This document shows, in pieces, positions 21,691 to 37,847 of a stretch of 64,000 bases of DNA (position 1 is the first letter of the stretch; each line of letters opens with the position of its first letter). The notes under the pieces were generated by a model. That model did no database searches and was not told the origin of the DNA. It saw only the letters and a program-made list of their open reading frames with translations. The translations under genes and the position numbers were made by a program. This stretch comes from Gordonia crocea (GTDB taxonomy: Bacteria > Actinomycetota > Actinomycetes > Mycobacteriales > Mycobacteriaceae), in NCBI RefSeq assembly GCF_009932435.1, contig NZ_BJOU01000001.1, forward strand, positions 2,356,001-2,420,000, written 5' to 3'.

Positions 21691-23586
21691 TCAGGCGTTG
21701 TCCGGGTCCTCGTCTGCGTCGGCCGCGTCGTCCGCGTCTGCATCGTCGTCCGCGTCGGCATCGGCTTCGGCGTCCTCCTCGGCTTCCGCTTCCGATTCGG
21801 CGTCGTCGTCACCTTCCGACTCGGCTTCCTCGTCAGCCTCGGATTCGGGTTCCTCCGCCGCGACATCATCGTCGTCGTCGGTGTCCGCAGTCTCGGCTGC
21901 CTCGCTGCGCCGCACGATGTTCGGCGCCTCGTCCTCCGCATCGGCGACGGCGTCATCAGCGCCAGCCTCGTCAGCGCCAGCCTCATCAGCGTCGGCGTCA
22001 TCAGCGTCGGCAACCTGGACGAACTCGTCGGCCTCCTCGGTCTCGTCCGCCCCGAAGAGTGCCGCCATCCGGTCGAGCGACGCGAGCAACGACTCGGCCG
22101 TCGTGGCGCGGGCGCGCTCGTTGCGCTTGGCGTCGTCGGGGTCGAGACCGGTCCAGTCGTAGGTGTGGGTCACGAGGGTGACCCGGTCGTCGAGCGGTTC
22201 GAGCTCCCAGCGCCACAGGTGACCCGGCTGCGGGCCGCCCACCTCCGAGGGCTTCCACGCAATGAGCCGGTCGGTCTCGAACTCGACAATGGTGTTCTCC
22301 CGCACCCGACCGCTGGTGTTGGTCATCTGGAAGACGTCGCCGACGGCGCTGACCCGCTGGCCGTCCTCCGCCTCCGCCAGGTTCTCGTTGCCGTCGAACC
22401 GCGGTTGCTGCGCCGGATCGGCGATCAGGGCGAAGATCTCCGCCGCCGGTGCGTCAATTTCCCGCGTCGCGCTGACCACGCGGAGCTCGTCGTCGGGCCC
22501 AGTCGACGAGATCGAGGGCCCACTCGACGAGATCGAGGGCCCACTCGACGAGATTGAGGGCCCACTCGGCGAATCGGGGGCGTCGGTTTCGTCGGTTTCG
22601 TCGGTGGCGTCGACCTCGGAGGCGTCGACATCGGAGGCGTCGTCGGCGTCGTCGTCGGCCCACGGATCGATATAGCCGACCTTGCCCTCCGCCTCCAGCT
22701 CCGCGGCCCGCTTCGGGCGGTACATCGACAGCCCCAGTTCCCGACCGCGCGGGGCGGCGAGGAAGTAGGCCAACGCGCAACCGAACACCACGACCGCGAC
22801 GATCGAGTTCACCCGGATACCCATGCCGAAAGGCTCCGAAGCGGGGTCGTCACGCACCAGCTCGACGAAGAACCGGCCGAAGCAGTACCCCATCACGTAG
22901 AGCGCGAACAGGCGCCCGTGGCCGACCCGGTAGTAGCGGTCCACGGCGACGAGCACCAGGACGAACAAGACGTTCCACAACGCCTCATACAGGAACGTCG
23001 GGTGCACAATGGCCGTCCGGACCCCGGTCGACACCCCGGTCAGGTTGTCCGGAACCCGCTGGAAGATCTCCAGCCCCCACGGCAGGTCGGTGGCCCGCCC
23101 GTAGACCTCCTGGTTGAAGTAGTTGCCGAATCGGCCGATCGCTTGGGCCAGCAGGATCGCCGGCGCGATCGCGTCGCCGAACGCCGGCAACCTGATCCCG
23201 TAGACCTTGCAGCCGATCCAGGCGCCCACCGCACCGAGGGCCACCGCACCCCAGATGCCCAGACCGCCGTCCCAGATCTTGAACGCGTCCATCGCGCTCC
23301 GCGGCGGATTGAGGGTCTGCCCGAGGTCGGTGAAGTAGTACCGCCAGTCGGTGAGCACGTGGTAGGCCCGGCCACCGATCAATCCGAAGGGCACGGCGAA
23401 CAGCGCGACGTCGAGCACCTCGCCGGGCTGACCACCGCGCGCGATCCAGCGGCGCGACCCCCACCAGAGGGCGACGAGGATGCCGGCGACAATGCAGAGC
23501 GCATAGGCGCGGATCGGGATGGGACCCAGATGCCAGACGCCCTGCGACGGGCTCGGGATGTAGGCGAGGACCTGCGCGGAATTCAC
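21691..23586 (-). CDS. lgt: Prolipoprotein diacylglyceryl transferase fused to SRPBCC-like domain and acidic tail
   Basis: Residues 1-285 are Lgt, the membrane enzyme that adds diacylglycerol to the lipobox Cys of prelipoproteins. Seven hydrophobic segments and the signature G-R-F-G-N-Y-F-N-Q-E-V-Y-G (151-163) are present. Residues 300-340 are a D/E/T-rich linker. Residues 342-364 are three G-P-S-I-S-S-S/T repeats. Residues about 365-512 resemble an SRPBCC/START-like domain (I-D-A-P-A-A-E-I-F-A-L-I-A-D start, H-T-Y-D-W-T-G strand, and a C-terminal helix L-L-A-S-L-D-R-M-A-A-L-F). Residues 513-631 are almost entirely D/E/A. Mycobacterial Lgt also has a long tail, but an embedded lipid- or ligand-binding-type domain is unusual. 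It starts at a GTG 27 nt after trpA. Both extra parts should face the cytoplasm or the periplasm depending on the last helix; this was not resolved. Confidence 0.93.
   Translation of the reverse strand: MNSAQVLAYIPSPSQGVWHLGPIPIRAYALCIVAGILVALWWGSRRWIARGGQPGEVLDVALFAVPFGLIGGRAYHVLTDWRYYFTDLGQTLNPPRSAMDAFKIWDGGLGIWGAVALGAVGAWIGCKVYGIRLPAFGDAIAPAILLAQAIGRFGNYFNQEVYGRATDLPWGLEIFQRVPDNLTGVSTGVRTAIVHPTFLYEALWNVLFVLVLVAVDRYYRVGHGRLFALYVMGYCFGRFFVELVRDDPASEPFGMGIRVNSIVAVVVFGCALAYFLAAPRGRELGLSMYRPKRAAELEAEGKVGYIDPWADDDADDASDVDASEVDATDETDETDAPDSPSGPSISSSGPSISSSGPSISSTGPDDELRVVSATREIDAPAAEIFALIADPAQQPRFDGNENLAEAEDGQRVSAVGDVFQMTNTSGRVRENTIVEFETDRLIAWKPSEVGGPQPGHLWRWELEPLDDRVTLVTHTYDWTGLDPDDAKRNERARATTAESLLASLDRMAALFGADETEEADEFVQVADADDADADEAGADEAGADDAVADAEDEAPNIVRRSEAAETADTDDDDDVAAEEPESEADEEAESEGDDDAESEAEAEEDAEADADADDDADADDAADADEDPDNA
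22495..22578. repeat. Four in-frame 21-bp GGGCCC repeats inside lgt
   Basis: Units start at 22495, 22516, 22537 and 22558, each opening with GGGCCCA(G/C)TCG and continuing with ACGAGAT-type sequence; the last unit differs at its end. Because 21 bp equals seven codons they read G-P-S-I-S-S-S in the minus-strand lgt frame. The same core and the same period occur in the array upstream of hisD (36037-36370). The repeats lie at the junction between the Lgt part and the extra domain. Confidence 0.9.
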
Positions 23587-33452: not shown

Positions 33453-35931
<2,479 letters not shown>

Positions 35932-36036
35932 CAAGACTCCTGGTTCGATGGATGGGCTCCTATCAGGATATGCGGTCGACGGAAACGGTTTTCGCCACGT
36001 CCGCCCGGGTGTCACCCCGATGTGACCCGCGCCACC

Positions 36037-36140
36037 GCCGACTGGGCCCTCCTTCCGCCGACTGGGCCCTACTTTTCGCCGACTGGGCCCTACTTTTCGC
36101 CGACTGGGCCCTACTTTTCATCGACTGGGCCCTCCGCCCG
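36037..36140. repeat. Left array: five 21-bp GGGCCC repeats
   Basis: Units start at 36037, 36057, 36078, 36099 and 36120, reading GCCGACTGGGCCCT followed by ACTTTTC in the three middle units and by C-rich ends in the outer two. The middle three are identical. On the minus strand each is the same core (AGGGCCCAGTCGGC) as in the right array, so the two arrays are inverted relative to each other. No gene is present. The array lies in the leader of hisD. Confidence 0.95.
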
Positions 36141-36150
36141 CTTCCTGGGC

Positions 36151-36185
36151 GCCCGAGGAACTTGTGTGGCGACAAGCCCTCGGGC
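36151..36185. other. Two-step hairpin at the centre of the inverted repeat arrays
   Basis: The arms GCCCGAG (36151-36157) and CTCGGGC (36179-36185) enclose a second perfect stem, CTTGT (36161-36165) with ACAAG (36172-36176), around the loop GTGGCG. The hairpin lies in the unique spacer that separates the left and right arrays, at their axis of symmetry. In DNA it could seed a cruciform. In RNA it would nucleate pairing of the two arrays. Confidence 0.75.
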
Positions 36186-36370
36186 CCAGTCGGCAGGAAT
36201 GAGGGCCCAGTCGGCAGGAATGAGGGCCCACTCGGCAGGAATGAGGGCCCACTCGGCAGGAATGAGGGCCCACTCGGCAGGAATGAGGGCCCACTCGGCA
36301 GGAATGAGGGCCCACTCGGCAGGAATGAGGGCCCAGTCGACGGAAATGAGGGCCCAGTCGGCGGAGGGCG
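36182..36370. repeat. Right array: nine 21-bp GGGCCC repeats
   Basis: Nine head-to-tail units of exactly 21 bp start at 36182 and repeat every 21 bp, opening GGGCCCA(G/C)TCGGC and continuing AGGAATGA in the first seven. Units 1, 2, 8 and 9 have G at the variable base and units 3-7 have C, with units 3-7 identical. Unit 8 has TCGACGGAAATGA and unit 9 merges into GGCGGAGGGC. The array ends 5 bp before the stop of the aldehyde dehydrogenase gene. There are no spacers, so it is not a CRISPR. Confidence 0.95.
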
Positions 36371-36374
36371 GGAG

Positions 36375-37754
36375 CTAGGAACTCTTCGCGACCCGGCGCA
36401 GGCGGACGTTCGCGAACTCGCCCAGGCCCCACGGACCCAGCTCCCGGCCATAACCGGAGGCCTTCACACCCCCGAACGGCAGACCGGGCAGCGACGTGCC
36501 GTGCTCGTTGATCATCGCCATCCCGACATCGAGACGGTCGGCGACCTCACCGGCCTTCACGACATCGCTGCTCCACACCGACCCGGACAGGCCGTAGTCG
36601 ACGTCGTTGGCCAGCTGAACCGCCTCGTCGACGTCGGCGAAGGAGTACACCACTGCCACCGGACCGAAGATCTCCTCGCGGTAGGCCGCCATCTCCGGGG
36701 TGACCCCGGTCAGCACCGCCGGCGCCATGAACGCGCCCGGACCGTCGAGCGCCTGGCCGCCGGTGTGCAGCACCGCCCCCGCCGCGACGGCATCGGCGAC
36801 CTGCTCGACGACGTGGTCGCGCGCGGCGATCGACGACAGCGGACCTACCCGGGTGGCGGGATCGGCGGGATCGCCGACCGCCATCGCGGACACCGCCGCG
36901 GTCAGATTCGCCACGAAGTCGTCGTAGACCTCCTCGTGCACGATGAACCGCTTCGGCGAGTTGCACGCCTGGCCGCAGTTCATCATCCGGCCAGCGGCCG
37001 CACCGGCGGCAGCGGCGCCGACGTCGGGGCTGTCGAGCAGGATGAAGGCATCCGAGCCGCCCAATTCGAGGACCGACTTCTTCAGATGCCGGGCGGCGGT
37101 CTGCGCCACCGCGGCCCCGGCCCGGCCGCTGCCGGTCAACGACACGCCCTGCACCCGACGGTCCCCGATCATGTCGGCCGCCTGCTCGTTGCTCGCGTAG
37201 ACGTTGAGGTAGGCGTCGGCCGGCACCCCGGCGGCGTGGGCGATCTCGGCCATCACCGCGGAACTCGCGGCACAGATCGGCGCATGCTTGAGGATGATGG
37301 TGTTGCCCAGCAGCAGGTTCGGCGCCGCGAAGCGGGCCACCTGGTAGTACGGGAAGTTCCACGGCATGATCCCGAGGATCGGCCCGATCGGCTCCCGGGT
37401 CACCGTCGACTCGGCCGCGCCCTGCGGATCGAGTTGCTCGGTTTCCAGGAGTACCGGACCGTGCTCGGCATACCAGTCGTAGATCATCGCGGTGAGCGCG
37501 AGCTCCCCCTTGGCCTGGGCCAACGGCTTGCCCATCTCCTTGCTCACCAATGCCGCGAGCTCGTCGGCACGGTCGCGGTAGGCCTGCGCCGTCGCGCGCA
37601 GCATCGCCACGCGGTCATCGACGGAACTGCGCCGCCACTGCTGATAGGCCTCCGACGACCGGGCCAGGACGTCCTGGACGTCGGCGTCGCTCATGGTGTC
37701 GAAGGTTTGCTCGACGACGCCGGTGGTCGGGTTCTGAGTCACATAGTCGGTCAT
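36375..37754 (-). CDS. NAD(P)-dependent aldehyde dehydrogenase, succinate-semialdehyde dehydrogenase-like
   Basis: A 459-residue aldehyde dehydrogenase. Visible are M-P-W-N-F-P-Y-Y-Q (about 131-139), the cofactor motif L-T-G-S-G-R-A-G, the general-base Glu in L-E-L-G-G-S-D-A-F and the nucleophile Cys in G-Q-A-C-N-S-P-K-R-F (about 260-269). The length and the short N-terminus fit the GabD1-like succinate-semialdehyde dehydrogenases of mycobacteria, so succinate semialdehyde is a fair guess for the substrate. The ATG at 37754 is preferred over an upstream TTG. The gene lies on the same strand between nadC and hisD but is separated from each by repeats, so it is probably its own unit. Confidence 0.9.
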   Translation of the reverse strand: MTDYVTQNPTTGVVEQTFDTMSDADVQDVLARSSEAYQQWRRSSVDDRVAMLRATAQAYRDRADELAALVSKEMGKPLAQAKGELALTAMIYDWYAEHGPVLLETEQLDPQGAAESTVTREPIGPILGIMPWNFPYYQVARFAAPNLLLGNTIILKHAPICAASSAVMAEIAHAAGVPADAYLNVYASNEQAADMIGDRRVQGVSLTGSGRAGAAVAQTAARHLKKSVLELGGSDAFILLDSPDVGAAAAGAAAGRMMNCGQACNSPKRFIVHEEVYDDFVANLTAAVSAMAVGDPADPATRVGPLSSIAARDHVVEQVADAVAAGAVLHTGGQALDGPGAFMAPAVLTGVTPEMAAYREEIFGPVAVVYSFADVDEAVQLANDVDYGLSGSVWSSDVVKAGEVADRLDVGMAMINEHGTSLPGLPFGGVKASGYGRELGPWGLGEFANVRLRRVAKSS

Positions 37755-37788
37755 GTCCGCCAACGTACGCGCCCGCCCCGGCGACCGA

Positions 37789-37830
37789 GCCGAATTCCCC
37801 AGGCCGAATTCCCCAGGCCGAATTCCCCAG
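37789..37830. repeat. Three tandem 14-bp repeats
   Basis: Three perfect copies of GCCGAATTCCCCAG lie at 37789, 37803 and 37817, followed by a related fourth unit that turns into the adjacent hairpin. They are in the 123-bp gap between nadC and the aldehyde dehydrogenase gene, both on the minus strand, so they are in the promoter region of the latter. The sequence is unrelated to the 21-bp repeat. Confidence 0.9.
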
Positions 37831-37847
37831 GCCGGGTTATCCCGGCC
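37830..37847 (-). terminator. Hairpin after nadC
   Basis: The arms GGCCGGG and CCCGGCC with the loop TTAT form a perfect 7-bp stem 31 bp after the nadC stop. No T run follows. Its position suggests termination of the nadA-nadC transcript. Confidence 0.45.

What the first reader, a model, noticed from the sequence alone, without database searches (positions are those of the whole stretch)
36037..36370. Inverted arrays of a 21-bp GGGCCC repeat upstream of the his-trp supraoperon
Five units in one orientation and nine in the other, all sharing AGGGCCCAGTCGGC at its core, face each other across a 41-bp spacer. Three left units are identical, and five right units are identical to each other. The arrays fill the gap between the aldehyde dehydrogenase gene and hisD, both on the minus strand, so any read-through transcript would carry them and could fold back over about 100 bp. 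They have no spacers and no nearby cas, so they are not CRISPR. They could be an insulator, attenuator, protein-binding array or mobile micro-repeat; I know no named family that matches. Near-perfect identity suggests recent expansion or gene conversion.
Basis: partly seen in the sequence, partly recalled or inferred. Interest (0 to 1): 0.8.

Follow-up and report, generated by a model that had tools for sequence, protein, structure and literature searches.

The report
Species-specific repeat arrays after stop codons
Short DNA repeats spaced two helix turns apart sit in arrays just behind the stop codons of many genes in some Gordonia bacteria, spelled differently in different species and in one relative often at the same genes, which makes them an unusual spreading repeat and possibly a gene-boundary signal.

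Summary
The inverted arrays are real but are one site of a genome-wide family of roughly 130 arrays. The core GGGCCCASTCG occurs 608 times in this 3.78-Mb Gordonia genome, against 24 for the reversed control; 447 of 449 neighbouring pairs are exactly 21 bp apart. In 864 kb sampled, 24 of 30 arrays lie behind a stop codon in sense, 13 with the core exactly 4 nt after it. Units are almost always in arrays. Forty of 59 Gordonia genomes lack the 21-bp pattern; others carry their own core (GGGCAC, GGGCTC, GGGCGC) or a 22-bp form. G043 (G. araii) has an array at 7 of 15 orthologous gene ends, never with the window's core, against 7 of 351 ends in general. Best reading: a MIRU-like dispersed minisatellite, homogenised within species, anchored at gene ends; whether a passenger or a boundary signal read by a species-specific factor is open. 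His attenuation and artefact are disfavoured; a CRISPR layout and general RNA hairpins are not met. All four copies of an IS30-type element sit in arrays. New variant of a known kind.

The parts
36182..36370 (-). Nine-unit array, sense orientation for the minus-strand aldehyde dehydrogenase gene; first core 14 nt after its stop codon
36037..36136 (+). Five-unit array in the opposite orientation (antisense to both neighbours), upstream of hisD; an exception to the stop-codon rule
   Evidence: a two-unit antisense array with another core (GGGCACGATCG) lies in the same gap in G014 / UBA5067 (L031, L191)
36133..36181 (.). 49 bp between the cores of the two facing arrays
22495..22581 (-). Second array of the family (four units), in sense orientation inside an ORF, in the linker between an LGT domain and a Polyketide_cyc2 domain
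36375..37763 (-). Aldehyde dehydrogenase gene (PF00171) behind whose stop codon the nine-unit array lies
34585..35931 (-). hisD, histidinol dehydrogenase (PF00815), downstream neighbour
35957..35985 (-). Block upstream of hisD shared with two relatives, with a -10-like TATCCT (promoter by inference); the arrays lie upstream of it

Best explanation
It is one site of a genome-wide, MIRU-like dispersed minisatellite. Unit, read along the gene: YCGYCGASTGGGCCC plus six more variable bases, 21 bp = two helix turns. Shown: arrays of 2-9 units, strict spacing, a nearly invariant core with variable spacers, lone units rare, sense orientation directly behind stop codons, species-specific cores, and frequent occupation of the same gene ends in G043 (G. 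araii) with a different core. Inferred: the family spreads as multi-unit blocks that become fixed behind stop codons because that site and orientation disturb neither genes nor promoters; unit amplification and exchange between loci spread one unit variant through the genome, so that a lineage changes its spelling at most of its sites while many sites stay occupied. Inferred and less sure: some arrays have been co-opted as boundaries between transcription units.
For: 608 cores, 447 of 449 pairs at 21 bp. 864-kb sample: 30 arrays; 11 convergent, 13 tandem-sense, 2 tandem-antisense, 3 divergent, 1 in an ORF; of the 24 in sense behind a stop, 13 have the core exactly 4 nt after it and 16 within 3-5 nt (two of the 24 are halves of one array split by an IS, and one overlaps the called gene end). 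Of 751 gene ends, 25 carry units in sense and the only single one is the far half of an IS-split array. Units shared between loci: 118 spacers, 48 types, 11 at two or more loci, up to 7 loci. Other species: 58 arrays and 28 of the 22-bp form; over the three samples tandem arrays are 35 sense to 12 antisense (p = 0.001) and arrays inside ORFs 12 to 2 (p = 0.013) (arrays in one gap are not independent). Patchy: the general 21-bp pattern is in 19 of 59 Gordonia genomes, many with few copies. Replacement: 7 of 15 orthologous ends in G043 hold sense arrays, none with the window's core, against 7 of 351 ends in 400 kb of G043 (Fisher p = 1e-7). The 22-bp form is in G043, G014 and G005, which group with G000 in an aldehyde dehydrogenase tree (86/81), while G000 keeps only 3 pairs. 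Resemblance to MIRUs, which a review calls apparently mobile repeats that insert at start codons (PMC12548453, one passage).
Against: No enzyme or intermediate that would move the arrays was found; the IS30-type element that lands in them is not seen (E <= 1e-60) in array-rich G043, G014, G005 and G059. The nearly invariant core and the near absence of spacing changes (2 of 449) despite 48 spacer types point to a constraint that a pure passenger would need for its own propagation. No orientation bias in tandem arrays of G059 (5 to 5). In G014, sister of G000 in the tree, only 2 of 15 ends hold a sense array, one of them with the window's core at 20 bp. The G043 background comes from three large contigs, which may be poor in arrays because draft assemblies break at repeats.
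Confidence: 0.48

Rival explanations
1. Directional boundary element: a species-specific DNA-binding protein binds the 15-17 bp cores cooperatively on one face of the helix and stops RNA polymerase (or insulates) at the end of a transcription unit; the cores change in concert because the protein's specificity changes.
For: Spacing of two helix turns kept at 447 of 449 pairs and as 22 bp at 81 of 84 steps in the other form; units rarely alone; core far more constrained than spacer; sense orientation and stop-codon abutment; conserved positions with changed core in G043.
Against: A first comparison of convergent gaps seemed to show that arrays replace native DNA and hairpins, but it had left out array-less gaps under 20 bp; with all gaps the remaining DNA is a median of 4 bp (n = 9) against 18.5 bp (n = 114), p = 0.06, and strong hairpins are 1 of 9 against 25 of 114, p = 0.68. 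Tandem ends show no hairpin difference (6 of 12 against 74 of 241). One array is followed by a hairpin with a T tail (C1:1089253, by eye). Sense arrays inside ORFs would block their own gene. Most congeners do without; no binding protein identified.
Confidence: 0.25
2. RNA-level element: the transcribed array (C-rich, in sense orientation, untranslated because it follows the stop codon) is a loading site for Rho or another RNA-binding protein, or forms terminator hairpins, GGGCCC of one unit pairing with the next.
For: Sense bias; base composition C 0.40-0.49 against G 0.25-0.32 in seven genomes; sense arrays inside translated ORFs would be silent for a factor that needs free RNA; GGGCCC is self-complementary in this species and in some arrays of genus g26.
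Against: Hairpins are not a general answer: the usual cores of G043, G063, G059 and G186 lack GGGCCC, and sense strands fold no better than shuffles in five of six other genomes (mean z +2.2, +0.2, +0.9, +1.3, +0.5, -1.0; 2-15 arrays each, mononucleotide shuffles); in this genome sense and antisense are alike (-1.9 and -2.1, dinucleotide shuffles). An RNA function would not obviously need the strict 21-bp spacing.
Confidence: 0.15
3. Uptake- or transfer-type signal: a species watermark like the DNA uptake sequences of Neisseriaceae, whose species variants are called dialects.
For: Hundreds of copies near gene ends and species-specific spelling of a few positions in a fixed frame; dialects described in PMC3630211 (search listing and start of abstract only).
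Against: Almost always tandem; not found in most congeners; no uptake machinery was looked for.
Confidence: 0.04
4. A local regulatory part of the his-trp region (attenuator or insulator).
For: Sits between aldehyde dehydrogenase and hisD; can fold back.
Against: The family fills about 130 sites (estimate); it lies upstream of the shared pre-hisD block; G. araii has no array in this gap but has two just upstream of the aldehyde dehydrogenase gene (L032).
Confidence: 0.02

Closest known systems
MIRU (mycobacterial interspersed repetitive units)
   Same: Dispersed, in tandem copies, apparently mobile, tied to the edges of genes; found in related actinobacteria (partly recalled).
   Different: From recall MIRUs are about 46-101 bp; the review passage seen (PMC12548453) says they insert at start codons with a coupled ORF. 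Here 21 or 22 bp, behind stop codons, core different between species.
TAACTGA-type direct repeats (Beggiatoaceae, cyanobacteria, Bacteroidetes); STRR (recalled)
   Same: Sets of short direct repeats at well over 100 sites in one genome (169 sets of 2-6 copies; abstract of PMC4679880).
   Different: Heptamers, mostly just upstream of start codons, the same heptamer in distant lineages; here a 21-bp unit behind stop codons with a lineage-specific core.
REP / REPIN elements
   Same: Short extragenic repeats in many copies (start of abstract of PMC3733652), targets of insertion sequences (title and start of abstract of PMC1525189).
   Different: REPs are palindromic; here the unit as a whole is not, although it holds a GGGCCC hexamer in some species; the arrays are strictly tandem and directional.
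DNA uptake sequences of Neisseriaceae
   Same: Many copies, species dialects (PMC3630211, listing only).
   Different: Lone copies are rare here; no uptake known.
Plasmid iterons
   Same: Direct repeats about two helix turns apart that bind a protein (recalled).
   Different: Some 130 sites, mostly at gene ends; no match in the plasmid collection (low-complexity filter on).

Membership tests
MIRU | Unit of about 46-101 bp (recalled) | tested here: not met
   21 bp in 117 of 118 sampled steps, 22 bp in the other form
MIRU | Dispersed tandem repeats in the direction of the adjacent gene, touching its edge | tested here: met
   24 of 30 arrays lie behind a stop codon in sense, 16 of 24 with the core within 3-5 nt
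MIRU | Insertion at a start codon with an ORF coupled to the next gene (PMC12548453) | tested here: not met
   Arrays abut stop codons; in tandem-sense cases the next called gene starts 20 bp or more away; 11 of 30 arrays are in convergent gaps with no start codon. Coupled ORFs as such were not looked for
CRISPR | Unique spacers of roughly repeat length | tested here: not met
   10 nt between 11-nt cores, many identical within and between loci
CRISPR | cas genes nearby | not tested
   No cas search was run
REP / REPIN | Palindromic unit | tested here: not met
   Consensus YCGYCGASTGGGCCCTC is directional; only its GGGCCC hexamer is palindromic, and G043, G063 and G059 lack it
Intrinsic terminator | Stable RNA hairpin specific to the sense strand | tested here: not met
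   Sense and antisense alike in G000; no excess stability in five of six other genomes; no Rfam family near its gathering score
Rho-dependent terminator | C-rich, G-poor untranslated RNA that Rho loads on | tested here: inconclusive
   C exceeds G 1.3- to 1.9-fold in seven genomes; Rho dependence cannot be tested here
DNA uptake sequence | Enhances uptake of homologous DNA | not testable with these tools
   Needs transformation assays
Protein-binding array (iteron-like) | Helically phased sites bound by a protein | tested here: inconclusive
   Phasing met; binding not testable, apart from the siting of an IS30-type element in the arrays

The most novel reading that the evidence does not exclude
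A directional gene-end code with species dialects: arrays of helically phased sites behind stop codons, read by a trans-acting factor that marks or enforces the ends of transcription units, whose recognition sequence is rewritten genome-wide, largely in place, when a lineage diverges.
Probability: 0.25. Interest if true: 0.88.

Novelty: new variant of a known kind. Interest (0 to 1): 0.64.

Why it matters
Well-known dispersed bacterial repeats are palindromic or longer. A short, directional repeat that keeps helical phase, sits right behind stop codons, and is found with a different spelling at the same gene ends in a related species gives a natural experiment on how repeats at a hundred unlinked sites change together in a bacterium. 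If a factor reads it, it is a new way to end or separate genes; if not, it is a clean case of concerted evolution of a spreading minisatellite. It also offers candidate variable-number markers and a marked landing site for an insertion sequence.

Tried and rejected
Disfavoured as a his attenuator: same arrays genome-wide. RNA hairpins as a general mechanism: folds. Not found on phages or plasmids: no match in 50,697 phage and 72,556 plasmid records (low-complexity filter on), and no exact two-unit match in viral contigs. Rfam: two weak hits far below their gathering scores. The IS30-type element as maker of the arrays: not seen in several array-rich genomes. Other arrays in array-less congeners: in 200 kb of G004 four intergenic arrays of other kinds, one of them (24 bp x 6.6) starting 2 bp behind a called gene; none in 100 kb of G066. 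Assembly artefact: disfavoured because independent assemblies of many species show the same anatomy; raw reads were not available. Papers: searches for Gordonia with tandem or intergenic repeats listed nothing on these repeats; the library lacks most subscription journals and only the listed rows were seen.

Withdrawn on checking: that arrays replace native terminators in convergent gaps. One search had excluded array-less gaps under 20 bp; with all gaps the difference is weak or absent. The odds of the boundary reading were lowered slightly for this and held up by the now measured background for position conservation.

Not done: search for a correlated trans-acting gene, cas search, strain-level comparison, cores of G058, G064 and G069 (counts only). 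Limits: gene calls come from my own simple codon-usage caller trained on this genome; arrays and one search were chosen by their hits; pieces of one higher-order array (L103) and arrays sharing a gap are counted apart. Estimate of 130 arrays: 608 cores minus about 24-30 lone ones minus 447 steps. Lone exact cores in the 864 kb: 8, of which six lie inside ORFs like background, one is an IS-split array end, and one (C1:433296) is a genuine lone intergenic unit, antisense to its neighbours. Antisense matches at 751 gene ends: 9, by my reading from arrays of neighbouring genes.

Full report
Observation. The facing arrays are present as described: five units (cores 36039-36132) and nine units (cores 36182-36360) with a 21-bp period and one 20-bp step. 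Not every unit has the quoted core: five right units read GGGCCCACTCGG and one GGGCCCAGTCGAC. The window has 26 matches to GGGCCCASTCG with up to one mismatch, against a mean of 9.5, and none of 100 shuffles reaches 26. A second array, four units, lies at 22495-22581.

Genome-wide family. The window lies in a 3,782,613-base genome whose nearest named records found are Gordonia sp. UBA5067 and G. araii (aldehyde dehydrogenase 89% and 86% identical; records of the genome itself may be left out there). The core occurs 317 + 291 times, against 12 + 12 for the reversed pattern. Two cores at exactly 21 bp: 447; at any gap of 6-14 bases: 449. Units in arrays minus steps gives about 130 arrays (inference).

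Placement. I read 864 kb (and the window) and called genes with a codon-usage caller of my own. Thirty arrays of 2-9 units were found: 13 tandem-sense, 11 convergent, 3 divergent, 2 tandem-antisense, 1 inside an ORF. The sample has 494 tandem, 128 divergent and 127 convergent gene junctions of any gap. Of the 24 arrays in sense behind a stop codon, 13 have the core exactly 4 nt after it and 16 within 3-5 nt; the others range from -14 (overlap with the called gene end) to 60 nt, and two of the 24 are halves of one array split by an insertion sequence. Scoring 751 gene ends with a unit matrix finds sense units at 25, only one of them single, and that one is the far half of another IS-split array. 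Eight lone exact cores exist in the sample: six inside ORFs, one IS-split, and one intergenic unit at C1:433296. The family thus exists almost wholly as arrays.

A claim that I dropped. One search suggested that arrays take the place of native DNA and hairpins in convergent gaps, but its control had left out gaps under 20 bp. With all gaps: median 4 bp of other DNA (n = 9) against 18.5 bp (n = 114), p = 0.06; strong hairpins 1 of 9 against 25 of 114, p = 0.68. There is no sound evidence here that arrays stand in for hairpin terminators.

Anatomy of the unit. Read along the gene the consensus is YCGYCGASTGGGCCCTCRWTC. Most core positions are 97-100% conserved while spacer positions fall to about 50% (detection itself used the 11-nt core with at most one mismatch). 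The 118 sampled spacers fall in 48 types, 11 of which recur at two or more loci, one at seven, which indicates exchange between loci. In the window the arrays lie between the aldehyde dehydrogenase stop and a pre-hisD block shared with L031 and L032, that is, between two likely transcription units rather than in a his leader.

Other species. With the general frame GGGCNCNNTCG at 21 bp, 19 of 59 Gordonia genomes have matches. Cores differ: G043 mostly GGGCACGGTCG (342 pairs), G063 GGGCTCGSTCG (115), G059 and G001 GGGCGCTGTCG (69 and 58); G064, G069 and G058 have 86, 46 and 31 pairs whose letters I did not see. In a draw of 301 genomes of the family, eight of nine genomes of one other genus (g26) carry them (2-71 pairs; GGGCACGCTCG common, GGGCCC cores also seen), other genera 0-5 pairs. 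A 22-bp relative, CGASTGGGCACC, is in G043 (192 pairs), G005 (115), G014 (44), with 3 in G000 and none in the 55 others. These four genomes group together in an aldehyde dehydrogenase tree (86/81; G000 with G014 99/96; G043 with G005 84/84). G043 and G014 give the same letters as the named G. araii and UBA5067 records in the aldehyde dehydrogenase-hisD gap. The most economical story (inference) is that the 22-bp form is older in this clade and the 21-bp GGGCCC form took over in the lineage of G000.

Same places, different spelling. I took the last 240 bases of 20 array-bearing genes and looked up G014 and G043 (44 matches, 30 loci examined, 15 gene ends in each genome). In G043, 7 of 15 ends carry a sense array, five of the 22-bp form and two with CGACCGTGCCC; two of the seven face each other in one gap. 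At two of them (220513, 307931) the core again starts 4 nt after the stop codon, although the stop codon differs at the second. The background, measured in 400 kb of G043, is 7 of 351 gene ends (5 of 116 with an opposite-strand neighbour), so 7 of 15 is far above it (Fisher p = 1e-7; counting gaps, 6 of 14 against the convergent rate, p = 1e-5). The 400 kb come from three large contigs, which may be array-poor; with an assumed 10% the p-value is 3e-4. In G014 it is 2 of 15 in sense, one of them with the window's own core at 20 bp, and one antisense pair in front of hisD; there is no background for G014, and draft assembly may have lost arrays.

Generality of the rule. The 58 arrays of six other genomes and 28 arrays of the 22-bp form were classed in the same way. 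Adding the three samples: 49 convergent, 35 tandem-sense, 12 tandem-antisense, 5 divergent, 12 inside ORFs in sense and 2 antisense, 1 at a contig edge. Tandem 35:12 has p = 0.001; inside ORFs 12:2 has p = 0.013; arrays sharing a gap are counted apart. G059 alone shows no bias (5:5). The exact 4-nt distance is less strict outside G000: in the 22-bp sample 3-6 nt at 8 of the 21 tandem-sense and convergent arrays.

How it works. RNA hairpins fail as a general mechanism: the usual cores of G043, G063, G059 and G186 lack GGGCCC and the sense RNA is no more stable than shuffles in five of six other genomes, while in this genome both strands fold equally. The sense strand is C-rich, which leaves a Rho-type role open. 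The strict two-turn spacing with variable spacers and the rarity of lone units speak for a protein on DNA. In-ORF arrays, patchy presence and coexistence of two families in G043 speak for a spreading repeat that is mostly tolerated; occupation of the same ends with a new core fits both, by exchange between loci or by co-evolution with a binder. I rate a MIRU-like minisatellite with concerted evolution highest (0.48), a DNA-bound boundary next (0.25), an RNA-level element third (0.15).

An insertion sequence that lands in the arrays. A 1.3-kb element with an rve-type transposase of IS30 type (Pfam rve above and HTH_38 just below its cutoff; the family name is recalled) has four copies in the genome. 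All four sit inside arrays at the same place, after the last C of the core, with CCC apparently duplicated, including one array of the G043 type. It is unlikely to be the maker of the arrays, since no copy at E <= 1e-60 was found in G043, G014, G005 and G059.

Known kinds. MIRUs are the nearest: dispersed, tandem, at gene edges (one passage of PMC12548453; other features recalled). Unit length and insertion at start codons differ. TAACTGA repeats (abstract of PMC4679880) resemble it in number and tandem form but lie before start codons. Species dialects are known for DNA uptake sequences (listing and start of abstract of PMC3630211). No paper on these Gordonia repeats was seen in the held library.

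Noticed in passing
L219, L220, L221, L222 (G000 C1:414194, 1967547, 1175540, 1105316): All four copies of an IS30-type insertion sequence lie inside the repeat arrays at the same base, with CCC apparently duplicated; a fifth place (C1:817557) has only about 20 bases like its left end, also right after an array.
   Followed up: yes
G000 C1:1175462-1175539 and 1176883-1177029 (L097): Two neighbouring arrays with cores typical of other species (CGACCGTGCCC, 21 bp; CGASTGGGCACC, 22 bp), on either side of an IS copy; relics or transferred DNA.
   Followed up: partly
window 37789-37834: A different tandem repeat, GCCGAATTCCCCAG x 3.3, just upstream of the aldehyde dehydrogenase gene, where G. araii (L032) has two facing arrays; its 12-base core was seen nowhere else in the 864 kb sampled (exact match).
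   Followed up: partly
window 21691-23586 (-): LGT (prolipoprotein diacylglyceryl transferase) domain joined to a Polyketide_cyc2 domain with a long acidic tail; a repeat array codes the linker.
   Followed up: partly
L103 7209-7631 (G043); also L105 and L119: A higher-order repeat of about 102 bp in which pieces of array alternate with GGCACTCGACCACC; a like motif precedes an array in another species (G063, L119).
   Followed up: no
L034 9108-9194; L035 7430-7493; L037 after 7371: Other Gordonia have other repeats: GCTAATCGGGCTCGGG x 5.4 (L034), and CTTGAGCGAGC...GAGTCGAAAGG elements downstream of the same aldehyde dehydrogenase gene (L035, L037).
   Followed up: no
G000, G014, G043, G005, G063: These array-rich genomes are among the smaller Gordonia genomes (3.0-3.9 Mb; G014 is 90% complete), though other small ones lack arrays and larger ones (G059, G064) have some.
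   Followed up: no
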